A stretch of 25,033 nucleotides of DNA from a virus, in the IMG/VR virus record IMGVR_UViG_3300009431_000131, positions 1-25,033 of that record. One strand, given 5' to 3'. The position numbers and the translations under genes were made by a program. Within the stretch, counting starts at the first letter, position 1; each line of letters starts with the position of its first letter. Below the pieces are notes generated by a model, which worked only from the letters and a program-made list of their open reading frames with translations, was not told the DNA's origin and did not search any database. Shown here one piece after another: positions 2,727-14,722 of this stretch.

Positions 2727-2901
2727 TGGAAACCTCCTTTTTTGGCTCTTCTATCCAAGGAGTTACATTCCACTCATCCTTAAGATAGTTATACCGGAAT
2801 CCAGATGTTTTAATTTCTCCCACATCAGGATGGTAAATAGTAGTACTACCATCAGGATTGGGTCCTTTAACACTTAAATGCCAATATCCTTTTAATATCA
2901 T
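2719..2901 (-). CDS. Hypothetical 60-aa protein coupled to DNA polymerase
   Basis: 60 residues, with a beta-rich look (GYWHLSVKGPNPDGSTTIYH) and a Gly/Pro-rich middle. Its ATG overlaps the polymerase stop as ATGA. No independent ribosome site is obvious, so it is probably translated by reinitiation after the polymerase. The compact overlaps on both sides support it as a real gene. Function unknown. Confidence 0.6.
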   Translation of the reverse strand: MILKGYWHLSVKGPNPDGSTTIYHPDVGEIKTSGFRYNYLKDEWNVTPWIEEPKKEVSID

Positions 2902-4799
2902 GCTTTTTTATACCTCTTGGCTCGATACCCTCCAGCAGATAAAGGTAGACCTTCCGCCCAGGGTGGGAGTTTACACATTAGTTCTCGCATTTCTTTTAAC
3001 ATTGTATCATCTTGCTGCTTAGGAACTTCAGACATAGTCTCATCATGAATACTTGCAACAAGTTTATACCCATGAGAATCTAACATTTGTTTCCCATGAG
3101 CAAGTATGTCACGAGCTAAGGCTTGAATTATGTTCTCAACAATTCTACCTGGTATCAGTTTTAATCGGCTCCATTTCTTGCTATAAGGATTGATACCCAT
3201 GTGAGTAGGAATAGGACCATAAGTATCATCTCTTACTTCAGGGGAATTATAAAATAAAGCTCGACCTGAGGGTAGAGTTAACTTTAACCATAGAGTATTG
3301 TTCCGGTCTTTGACAACTTTATACTTACTACGGTTACAAGTAAACTCTTTACCAGGATGCTGTATAGCAAAAACAGCGGCATCTTTAGAATCGTACCAGA
3401 AGGAAGGTACAAGATGGTAAAGAGTTCGGTAAGCATTGACAGCACTCTTAGACTGAAGAGCCGTAAGAACTAAGCCGTATCCTTCAGCTGTTCCACGGAA
3501 TCCAATATGACCGAGACCATAGCCACACCCTAAGATAATTATCTTTCCGACCCATCTTTGGTCGGGTGTAACTTGATCATACGACACACCAAATAAATGA
3601 GCAGCCATATCTATATAAGCATCATATCCCTGGCGTACTAAGTCTAGAGCTCGATCATCTCCTGTTTCCCAGATTAATAAGATATACTCTATGGAATCAT
3701 AGTCAATAGCTATAATGTCTTTACCTTCAGGAGCTTTAACCATAGGTCGGATAAGAGCTTTAGCACTGATGATGGGATTTTCTTCAAGGATTGAAAGGTC
3801 AAAGAACTTCTGTATCTCGGATTCAGGGTCTTCAACGGAAGCACGCGGGAGATTATGAATTTGAAAGCCCATACCAGCCCATCGTCCTGTTGATGCTCCA
3901 TAGAATCTTTGGTTGTCATAGACCCTCCCTTTATGGTTAAGCAGATTAATTTTAGTATATTTAGCTACCGATGATTTACCTAATTCCTGCCTCATAATTA
4001 AGAGGTCTTTAAGTTCCTGAGGTAAATCTTTCTTTAACCATTTTTCAACCGTCTCAGCTTGAAGATTAGGTATGGGAAAACCTTTAGAGTTAATGAATTT
4101 TACAATCCGCTGTACCTGAGTAATCTTAGTAACTATATGATCAGTCATATCAGGAAGACGTTGGGCATGTTCTATTTGATATGCTTCACATACTTCTTTG
4201 ATATGAGTCACTGTTTTATAGTCAACAGGTATACCGGTGTCATTCATTTTAACTGTTAATTCCCAGAGCTGTTGTTCATTAGCACTGAGAGTGTCAAGGG
4301 GCAGAGCTGCATGAAGTTCTTGTAAAGAATCAACATCATCTTTGCAGTACATATAAAAGTCACGCAGTTCTTCTGTAGTGTATTCAAATGGCGGTTGAGT
4401 AATCTTTTTGAGTAGTGCTAACTCAGATGCACCTTTCTGTCGTTTAAGATTTAAAACCTTCTCAACAGATGCAAGTTTCTGAGGGTAAGTGTATCGGCCA
4501 CAGATAGCCATGACATCAATACATCGATTTGCTCCAAGCTTATCAAAGCCGTATTTCCGACCAAGGATATTCCATACACGTCGGTCGAATTGGGCATTGA
4601 AAGCTATCCAAGTGTGATCAGCAGGAAAAATAAAACAATCAGGAATAGCCTGTCCTGGTGCCCACAATCTTGTACGATCTCCTTCACGTTTATACCCCAA
4701 GCAGACTATATCACTACTTGGGGTATTGAGGTAGTTCATTGTACCAACCTCTATTGGGAGATCAGATTTAGTTTCAAAGTCAAACCATATTCGGCTCAT
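2898..4799 (-). CDS. DNA polymerase, family A (PolA-type) with 3'-5' exonuclease
   Basis: 633 residues. The exonuclease domain is at the N-terminus: Exo I FDFETKS (D7, E9), Exo II NAQFDR, Exo III YCKDDV. The polymerase palm and fingers follow: motif A AIDYDSIEY, motif B R415-WVG-K419-III-L423-GCG-Y427-G, motif C SIHDET near residue 577. It is the replicative polymerase and lacks the 5' nuclease domain of bacterial Pol I. At the position equivalent to E. coli Phe762 it carries Leu423, a variant known from virioplankton polymerases. The Arg usually present in motif A is replaced by Ile. No strong ribosome site precedes the ATG. It overlaps the upstream 47-aa gene as ATGA, pointing to coupled translation. 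Confidence 0.95.
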   Translation of the reverse strand: MSRIWFDFETKSDLPIEVGTMNYLNTPSSDIVCLGYKREGDRTRLWAPGQAIPDCFIFPADHTWIAFNAQFDRRVWNILGRKYGFDKLGANRCIDVMAICGRYTYPQKLASVEKVLNLKRQKGASELALLKKITQPPFEYTTEELRDFYMYCKDDVDSLQELHAALPLDTLSANEQQLWELTVKMNDTGIPVDYKTVTHIKEVCEAYQIEHAQRLPDMTDHIVTKITQVQRIVKFINSKGFPIPNLQAETVEKWLKKDLPQELKDLLIMRQELGKSSVAKYTKINLLNHKGRVYDNQRFYGASTGRWAGMGFQIHNLPRASVEDPESEIQKFFDLSILEENPIISAKALIRPMVKAPEGKDIIAIDYDSIEYILLIWETGDDRALDLVRQGYDAYIDMAAHLFGVSYDQVTPDQRWVGKIIILGCGYGLGHIGFRGTAEGYGLVLTALQSKSAVNAYRTLYHLVPSFWYDSKDAAVFAIQHPGKEFTCNRSKYKVVKDRNNTLWLKLTLPSGRALFYNSPEVRDDTYGPIPTHMGINPYSKKWSRLKLIPGRIVENIIQALARDILAHGKQMLDSHGYKLVASIHDETMSEVPKQQDDTMLKEMRELMCKLPPWAEGLPLSAGGYRAKRYKKA

Positions 4800-4939
4800 A
4801 CCATCACCGATACATGATGACTATACCAGCCTATATGACACCAACAATTTAAACATGTAGCTTTATATGCTACAGTATTATTGGTGAATTCAACCCTTTT
4901 ATATTCGGGTCGTCGGCTATCACACTTACATTTTTGCAT
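4796..4939 (-). CDS. 47-aa Cys-rich (zinc-ribbon-like) small protein
   Basis: A 48-codon frame opens at an ATG at 4939 with GGAGGG 4 nt upstream. It ends in TGA overlapping the polymerase ATG as ATGA. The peptide begins MQKCKCDSRRPEYKR and contains a CxC pair (C4, C6) and CLNCWC (C29, C32, C34), a spacing typical of a small zinc ribbon. Its placement, a perfect ribosome site and the coupled stop/start make it a convincing real gene despite its size. Zinc binding, and a role in controlling polymerase expression or in replication, are inference. Confidence 0.8.
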   Translation of the reverse strand: MQKCKCDSRRPEYKRVEFTNNTVAYKATCLNCWCHIGWYSHHVSVMV

Positions 4940-4950
4940 AAACCCTCCAG

Positions 4951-5016
4951 GTTGGTGAGTGGGCACCCTCCATCCAACCCCTAAGTCTACTTAACTTCAG
5001 TATCCCACTCACCAAC
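4951..5016 (-). repeat. 13-bp perfect inverted repeat forming an intercistronic hairpin
   Basis: GTTGGTGAGTGGG at 4951-4963 is exactly complementary to CCCACTCACCAAC at 5004-5016, with a 40-nt interval. The interval itself contains a smaller dyad TAAGT-CT-ACTTA (4982-4993). It sits between the SSB stop and the ribosome site of the 47-aa gene on the leftward transcript. There is no T-run, so a mRNA-processing or stability element is likelier than a simple terminator. Confidence 0.75.
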
Positions 5017-5025
5017 AGTTAAAAT

Positions 5026-5601
5026 TTAGAACGGAATGTCGTCATCATCCATATCATTGGGAGACGATTCATCCGGTTCTGAGGCTTGACCGAAGCCGGC
5101 AAAAGCATCTTCTGCATTCATGCGGCCGTCAAGTCGATCGCCGTCGTTAGTCTTCATGATATTATTCAGTCCCACACCAATTCCGACATTGCCAGCCGTA
5201 TTGTATGGAAAGAAATTAATATCAACCCGTGCAAAGCAGCCAGAATAGAAGTCATCCTGATCAATGATCGGCTTGACATTCTTATCCACCATACCCGGAG
5301 GGTTCTTTGAAGAGGCATTAATAAAAAAGTGACCCTTATACTCTGGGCCACGGCTACCCTCTTCAAATTCCGCATCACCATCACGGATAGGAAGACGAAG
5401 CTTAGGGACATGAGCTTTACCGAACTTGTTATTATCAAGTCCCTTTTGGACGGCAGCCTGAATTGCATCATGAACTTCACCGATAGACTCGGTGTCGTCT
5501 TTAGGAATCAGCAGACACATCGAATATTTCATATCACCCGAAGGGGTCTTAGCCGGCTCCCAGACATTTGCGTAAGATACACGCACTTCACCTGTAATCA
5601 T
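5026..5601 (-). CDS. Single-stranded DNA-binding protein, DUF2815 family
   Basis: 191 residues, an OB-fold-like beta-rich protein. Recognisable DUF2815 features are the N-terminal GEVRVSYANVWEPA, the central GHFFINASSKNPPGMVD and the later VDINFFPYN with GVGLNNI. The C-terminus is strongly acidic and ends DMDDDDIPF, the SSB-tip arrangement that binds partner replication proteins. DUF2815 proteins are encoded beside family A polymerases and DUF2800 nucleases in many phages and act like T7 gp2.5. A strong AAGGAG precedes the ATG. Codons are more G/C-ending than those of adjacent genes, as expected of an abundant protein. Confidence 0.88.
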   Translation of the reverse strand: MITGEVRVSYANVWEPAKTPSGDMKYSMCLLIPKDDTESIGEVHDAIQAAVQKGLDNNKFGKAHVPKLRLPIRDGDAEFEEGSRGPEYKGHFFINASSKNPPGMVDKNVKPIIDQDDFYSGCFARVDINFFPYNTAGNVGIGVGLNNIMKTNDGDRLDGRMNAEDAFAGFGQASEPDESSPNDMDDDDIPF

Positions 5602-14328: not shown

Positions 14329-14722
14329 CACCACTTTGTGGTGCCTTATGTTTGATTGAGATTATTCTCAACCAATTATAATATAGTCATTGATTTGAAA
14401 ATGTAAATACCACAAAGTAGTACTTGTGAAAATAATTATCATTCTTATTATGAATGGGATTCATTGTAAGTACATACCACTTTGTGGTTATATACCACTA
14501 TGTAGTATGGCCATACTATACACCACCATGTGATATACCACAATGTAGTGGAGCCACAACATTTGGTTATATACCACGACGTGGTGTACCACAGTGTGGC
14601 CAAGCCACAACCATTGGTGATAGTGCCACATCGTGGTGTACCACATTATAATAGTACATCAGACTTTGCCTCACCATACCACAACGTGGTGCCGGCCCTG
14701 GGTGGTGGTACCACATTGTGGC
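14329..14722. repeat. Array of ACCAC-N3-GTGGT dyads
   Basis: Dyads are centred at about 14336, 14415, 14482, 14500, 14528, 14543, 14579, 14594, 14631, 14646, 14684 and 14716. Perfect pentamer arms occur at 14336, 14482, 14579 and 14684; the others differ by one or two bases or keep one arm. Sites at 14528/14543, 14579/14594 and 14631/14646 are pairs 15 bp apart repeating every 51 bp, and 14553-14603 and 14604-14654 are clear copies of a 51-bp unit. The region also holds the palindromes TAGTATGGCCATACTA (14503-14518) and GTGGTACCAC (14705-14714). No real gene was found in this stretch. Confidence 0.9.
14380..14407 (-). promoter_or_regulatory. Promoter of the winged-helix gene
   Basis: On the minus strand TTTACA (14407-14402), 16 nt, TATATT (14385-14380). 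An ACCAC-type dyad (14408-14422) touches the -35, and a second (14329-14343) lies in the leader, an arrangement suited to autorepression. Confidence 0.72.

What the first reader, a model, noticed from the sequence alone, without database searches (positions are those of the whole stretch)
4796..4939. Overlooked 47-aa zinc-type gene coupled to DNA polymerase
Below usual ORF-length cut-offs, yet with an ideal ribosome site, CxC...CxxCxC ligands and an ATGA overlap with the polymerase, which has no ribosome site of its own. Polymerase translation probably depends on it.
Basis: partly seen in the sequence, partly recalled or inferred. Interest (0 to 1): 0.5.

Follow-up and report, generated by a model that had tools for sequence, protein, structure and literature searches.

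The report
Orphan mini-gene overlapping phage DNA polymerase
A 47-residue, cysteine-bearing mini-gene really does overlap the start of this phage's DNA polymerase gene, but no relative of it was found and the arrangement is an ordinary kind of phage gene overlap, with a predicted RNA hairpin over the polymerase start that would fit coupled translation.

Summary
The 47-aa frame is real and correctly placed (minus strand, 4939-4796), with a good ribosome site, C4/C6/C29/C32/C34 and an ATGA overlap with a family-A DNA polymerase. It beats chance modestly: 0.54% of shuffled gaps give such a frame with such a ribosome site. The claim that the polymerase lacks its own ribosome site is wrong as stated: GGTGAT lies 3 nt before its ATG (-9.1 kcal/mol). 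That site and the ATG are, however, within a predicted 20-bp interrupted hairpin whose other arm is the end of the mini-gene, as RNA-unfolding coupling would need. No relative of the peptide was found in the collections searched. Across 26 related viruses the SSB-polymerase gap is a turnover slot: 13 of 26 hold an ORF overlapping the polymerase start, and the polymerase ribosome site is no weaker there. Verdict: an orphan, probably translated small ORF, plausibly coupled to the polymerase by a textbook mechanism; zinc binding unproven. A strong hairpin after the SSB gene proved common to intergenic gaps of these viruses (13 of 24 against 17 of 51, p=0.13).

The parts
4796..4939 (-). 47-aa mini-ORF, CxC...CxxCxC
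   Evidence: an in-frame upstream GTG at 4966 would give 56 aa
4943..4948 (-). Shine-Dalgarno GGAGGG of the mini-ORF
   Evidence: duplex -9.8 kcal/mol
4796..4799 (-). ATGA overlap: stop TGA of mini-ORF, start ATG of polymerase
4803..4808 (-). GGTGAT, SD-like site of the polymerase
   Evidence: sequence; duplex -9.1 kcal/mol; forms the 3' arm of the apical stem of the predicted hairpin below
4785..4838 (-). predicted 20-bp interrupted hairpin holding polymerase SD and two bases of its ATG; 5' arm lies in the mini-ORF
   Evidence: -21.3 kcal/mol in 60 nt, 4 of 1000 shuffles as stable
2898..4799 (-). family-A DNA polymerase with RNase_H_2-type exonuclease region, 633 aa
4951..5016 (-). predicted stem-loop after the SSB gene, 13-bp stem (5016-5004 / 4963-4951), ends 2 nt before the mini-ORF SD
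5026..5601 (-). SSB of the Enc34_ssDNA-bd (PF10991) family
   Evidence: E=9.5e-60; phrog_112

Best explanation
The mini-ORF is a young or fast-turnover small gene in the variable slot between the SSB and DNA polymerase genes. It is probably translated from its own GGAGGG site. A ribosome finishing the mini-ORF opens the hairpin that holds GGTGAT and the polymerase ATG and terminates on that ATG (ATGA), so that the polymerase is started by reinitiation or by a newly admitted 30S subunit. Translation of the polymerase is thus raised by, though perhaps not wholly dependent on, translation of the mini-ORF. Shown: the frame, its SD, the overlap, the SD-like site, the slot turnover. Predicted only: the hairpin. 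Inferred: that the frame is translated, that the hairpin forms in the cell, that coupling occurs. The peptide's own role is unknown; its cysteine spacing would suit a small metal-binding beta peptide.
For: ATGA overlap. Frame plus SD exceed chance (0.54% of 5,000 shuffles). Polymerase-start hairpin -21.3 kcal/mol, 4 of 1000 shuffles as stable; opening energy 16.0 against a mean of 9.6 for 30 other assigned starts in the window. Related viruses repeatedly hold some ORF overlapping the polymerase start (13 of 26, window included). Overlapping pairs are a known site of coupling: an abstract passage (cut in my view) speaks of 13 of 14 tested pairs, and a passage names 3 of 5 E. coli pairs with predicted structure at or near the downstream start (PMC6728339, passages); both coupling models are set out in PMC12548453 (passages).
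Against: No relative of the peptide was found, so no conservation supports coding. Codon usage is intermediate. Three plus-strand starts in the window (19850, 20731, 21284) have opening energies of 15.5-17.3, and 8.8% of 250 random ATGs reach 16.0, so a buried start is not by itself telling. Of the 25 relatives none has so high an opening energy at the polymerase start (4.7-13.0), so the hairpin is not conserved; the G+C-rich phages BPP-1 and Mae-Yong1326-1, which also have an overlapping small ORF, reach 15.7 and 16.4. The polymerase SD-like site could work alone.
Confidence: 0.5

Rival explanations
1. The mini-ORF is translated but coupling is incidental: the polymerase initiates on its own from GGTGAT, and the overlap only reflects compact packing of a phage operon.
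For: GGTGAT at a proper distance, duplex -9.1. In relatives with an overlapping ORF the polymerase SD is as strong as in those without. The polymerase stop itself overlaps the next ORF by 4 nt (2898-2901), and 541-768/765-989 overlap likewise, so 4-nt overlaps are routine here.
Against: Here the SD and ATG are in a strong predicted hairpin.
Confidence: 0.25
2. The peptide is a functional small zinc-binding protein of the replication module, kept next to the polymerase because it acts with it.
For: Five spaced Cys; other Cys-rich small ORFs overlap the polymerase start in L010, L014, L016, L101 and in Bordetella phage BPP-1 (bbp41, 3 Cys). Small ORFs with at least 4 Cys and a CxC/CxxC motif: 3 of 12 within 60 nt of the polymerase start, 5 of 123 elsewhere in 26 loci, Fisher p=0.024.
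Against: The window is one of the three; without it 2 of 11 against 5 of 123, p=0.10. The Cys-rich ORFs do not align with the mini-ORF: 11 comparisons, best uncorrected p=0.015 with L014, not significant after correction. On the polymerase tree the Cys label needs 5 changes for 5 rows, no fewer than shuffled labels. The BPP-1 type also occurs away from the polymerase (L107:68-337).
Confidence: 0.15
3. The frame is not translated; the open frame and cysteines are chance, and the sequence is constrained as RNA (two hairpins) rather than as protein.
For: The 271-nt stretch folds better than all 200 shuffles, z=-4.1. No peptide relative; weak codon signal.
Against: Good SD at the right distance and a frame ending exactly at ATGA, 0.54% by chance.
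Confidence: 0.1

Closest known systems
ATGA/TGATG overlapping gene pairs with termination-reinitiation (PMC6728339; reviewed in PMC12548453; passages of both seen)
   Same: 4-nt overlap, SD inside the upstream gene, predicted structure at the downstream start
   Different: No experiment here; the upstream gene is an orphan of 47 codons and the downstream gene a phage polymerase
Bordetella phage BPP-1 bbp40-bbp42
   Same: bbp40 (22% identical to the window SSB in an alignment), then a small Cys-bearing ORF (bbp41, 62 aa) whose last base is the first base of the polymerase start
   Different: bbp41 does not align with the mini-ORF (shuffle p=0.30); polymerase about 30% identical
Microcystis phage Mae-Yong1326-1 SSB/small ORF/polymerase
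   Same: small ORF (76 aa) with ATGA overlap with the polymerase
   Different: no cysteines; not compared directly with the mini-ORF

Membership tests
Translationally coupled overlapping gene pair | stop and start codons overlap (ATGA or TGATG) | tested here: met
Translationally coupled overlapping gene pair | downstream start hindered unless the upstream gene is translated | tested here: inconclusive
   predicted hairpin over SD and ATG, opening 16.0 kcal/mol, but 8.8% of 250 random ATGs reach that value; not tested in cells
Translationally coupled overlapping gene pair | downstream expression falls when upstream translation is stopped | not testable with these tools
   needs a reporter experiment
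Zinc-ribbon / zinc-finger protein | match to a known zinc-binding family | tested here: not met
   no family in Pfam (47-aa form E<=1; 56-aa form E<=10) or NCBIfam (both forms E<=10); in PHROGs none for the 47-aa form (E<=5) and only phrog_30280, function unknown, E=0.025, for the 56-aa form
Zinc-ribbon / zinc-finger protein | two Cys pairs able to form a metal site | tested here: inconclusive
   C4, C6, C29, C32, C34 present; all-beta single-sequence model, mean pLDDT 75.7, no solved fold at E<=0.001; metal binding untested
Homolog of BPP-1 bbp41 | sequence similarity | tested here: not met
   score 23 against shuffle mean 21.1, p=0.30

The most novel reading that the evidence does not exclude
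The SSB-polymerase junction of this phage group is an RNA control point. A stem-loop of freely changing sequence sits just after the SSB stop and next to the following ribosome site, setting the ratio of SSB to polymerase; small ORFs dropped into the slot, such as this one, take over the post-hairpin ribosome site and hand ribosomes on to the polymerase. One search shows that hairpins are common in other intergenic gaps of these viruses too, so this may be one case of a general intergenic design rather than something special to SSB.
Probability: 0.15. Interest if true: 0.45.

Novelty: new member of a known kind. Interest (0 to 1): 0.22.

Why it matters
If the coupling holds, polymerase dosage in this phage depends in part on a 47-codon frame of the size that length cut-offs skip. 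More broadly, the gap between SSB and polymerase in this group offers natural variants (empty slot, Cys ORF, other ORF) for testing how phages balance SSB against polymerase.

Tried and rejected
A hit of the 56-aa form in viral contigs (L090, 34% identity) was rejected: it lies in a stretch whose own longer open frames are unrelated. That it was seeded by the extension residues is my inference.

The fold search of the single-sequence model gave 78 matches at E<=10 and none at E<=0.001; nothing was drawn from it.

Possible kinship with Cys-rich slot ORFs of L016 (KCYC...CDKCGLC) and L101 (KCLCG...CKRC) looked tempting by eye but failed shuffles (p=0.32, 0.34). L014 gave uncorrected p=0.015 among 11 tests and is not claimed.

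A restriction-alleviation (Lar-like) zinc-ribbon identity was considered from memory for L016 and dropped: no such family in the Pfam, PHROGs or NCBIfam scans.

The post-SSB hairpin as a special RNA element: with controls after the polymerase stop (0 of 38 at z<=-3) and inside the SSB gene (0 of 94) it looked special (23 of 48). Against a fairer control, the first 90 nt of other intergenic gaps of 40-400 nt in the 26 rows, it is 13 of 24 against 17 of 51 (Fisher p=0.13; z values lower by Mann-Whitney p=0.006). As a plain terminator it fits only some: a T-run follows it in L103, L107 and L017, not in the window.

Twelve named phage regions were read. A CDS annotated upstream overlaps the polymerase start in 4 of 12 (BPP-1 by 1 nt; Mae-Yong1326-1, DoCa5 and Leszy by 4 nt); in the other 8 none on the same strand does.

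Full report
Setting. The window is a 25,033-base virus record (the same output explains how IMG/VR classes such records). Its minus-strand half is a replication module: DUF2800, Thy1, dCMP deaminase, Enc34-type SSB, the mini-ORF, a family-A DNA polymerase, a weak VRR-NUC match below Pfam's cut-off, an ATP-dependent ligase match, and a VapE-like gene. Frames that I take for structural genes lie on the plus strand (those names are my reading, not a search).

The observation. The frame, its five cysteines and the ATGA overlap are as described, on the minus strand. The SD GGAGGG scores -9.8 kcal/mol. Among 5,000 dinucleotide shuffles of the 226-nt SSB-polymerase gap, 1.94% give an ORF of 47 or more codons ending at the ATGA and 0.54% give one that also has an SD at or below -8. 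Codon usage lies between that of genes and of open off-frame stretches: 8.7% of 149 gene pieces score lower, 6.7% of 60 off-frame pieces score higher. The frame is thus probably, not certainly, a gene.

The polymerase ribosome site. The statement that the polymerase has none is not right: GGTGAT lies 3 nt before the ATG, with duplex energy -9.1, reached by 3.2% of 250 random minus-strand ATGs. But those six bases are the 3' arm of the apical stem of a predicted 20-bp interrupted hairpin (4838-4785) that also pairs two bases of the ATG and whose 5' arm is made of mini-ORF codons. It is worth -21.3 kcal/mol in 60 nt, and 4 of 1000 shuffles match it; 32 of 2,498 minus-strand 60-nt windows are as stable. 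The opening energy at the polymerase start is 16.0 kcal/mol, against a mean of 9.6 for 30 other assigned starts; three plus-strand starts (19850, 20731, 21284) lie at 15.5-17.3 and 8.8% of 250 random ATGs reach 16.0. The structure is the one that coupling by RNA unfolding requires, but its presence is not proof.

Relatives of the peptide. None found: tblastn in 50,697 phage records at E<=1; Pfam, PHROGs and NCBIfam (one PHROG of unknown function at E=0.025 with the 56-aa form); viral contigs (one false hit); 25 records of relatives at E<=10, while the same tool finds the window itself at 7e-34.

The slot. The nearest polymerase is 51% identical. I compared 26 rows (window plus 25), leaving out near-copies (L020, L022, L091, L102, L108, L111), second loci of one contig, fragments without a polymerase start (L100, L106), and the more distant polymerases (L024-L047, L061-L073, L109, L110 and the named phages). 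An ATG-started ORF of at least 30 aa with SD <= -5 overlaps the polymerase start by 1-52 nt in 13 of 26. Neighbours on the tree differ: L016 and L017, L014 and L019, L092 and L095 are sister pairs with different slot content, and L018, L019, L058, L092 and L093 have a gap of only 45-76 nt with no ORF listed. The window sits on a long branch, so its place is unsure. The polymerase's own SD is no weaker under an overlap (medians -10.7 and -9.3, p=0.72). So overlap with an upstream ORF is common and dispensable across the group.

Cysteine-rich neighbours. ORFs with four or more cysteines overlap the polymerase start in L010 (60 aa), L014 (69 aa), L016 (80 aa) and L101 (about 70 aa), and one with three in BPP-1 (bbp41). 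By a fixed rule (at most 100 aa, at least 4 Cys, a CxC or CxxC, ending within 60 nt of the polymerase start) 3 of 12 qualify against 5 of 123 elsewhere in the same 26 loci, p=0.024; L010 fails the motif part, and L101 is not among the 12 rows, I think because its called form exceeded 100 aa. The window is one of the three and prompted the test; without it p=0.10. Labels on the polymerase tree need 5 changes for 5 Cys rows, with no clustering, and the BPP-1 type occurs in L107 away from the polymerase (19 of 48 identical). At most this is a weak tendency of the slot to hold small Cys proteins.

The post-SSB hairpin. The mini-ORF SD begins 2 nt after a predicted 13-bp stem (5016-5004 / 4963-4951). 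The 90 nt after the SSB stop were folded in 48 loci with an SSB match (near-copies dropped, some close pairs remain): z<=-3 in 23 of 48, z<=-2 in 31 of 48. Stretches after the polymerase stop gave 0 of 38 at z<=-3 and stretches inside the SSB gene 0 of 94 (fewer shuffles for the controls). A fairer control weakens this: in the 26 rows, 17 of 51 other intergenic gaps of 40-400 nt also reach z<=-3, against 13 of 24 SSB gaps (Fisher p=0.13; Mann-Whitney on z p=0.006; the first sign was). Hairpins are thus common in the true intergenic gaps of these viruses, and the SSB gap is at most a strong example. In L018, L019, L058 and L093 the hairpin is framed by a leading CCTT- or TCTT-type stretch that can pair with the SD of the polymerase. 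Two literature searches (listings only) showed me no report of such an element; that is not a claim of absence.

Comparison with the known. Coupling of overlapping pairs is well established. PMC6728339 (abstract and passages) tested 14 pairs, reports a result for 13 of 14 (the sentence was cut in my view), and predicts structure at three named E. coli downstream starts. The review PMC12548453 (passages) describes RNA unfolding and ribosome scanning, the MS2 example, and short upstream ORFs whose only role may be to deliver ribosomes. The window's arrangement is a new instance of this kind, not a new kind. A search for phage polymerase genes coupled to an upstream ORF gave no obvious precedent in its listing of 8 of 9 papers (listing only).

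Verdict. Interest 0.22.

Noticed in passing
window 4951-5016 (minus), and after the SSB gene in relatives (L010, L011, L018, L019, L058 and others): Strong predicted stem-loop directly after the SSB stop: 23 of 48 loci at z<=-3. Other intergenic gaps of these viruses show the like in 17 of 51, so it looks like a general intergenic habit.
   Followed up: partly
L107:68-337 and L005:2313-2501: BPP-1 bbp41 has a relative (19 of 48 identical, VTCKxCG...HxC) in L107, away from the polymerase.
   Followed up: partly
window 14407-14721: Cluster of degenerate repeats around ACCAC...GTGGT between the two gene blocks; candidate operator or origin.
   Followed up: no
   Followed up: no
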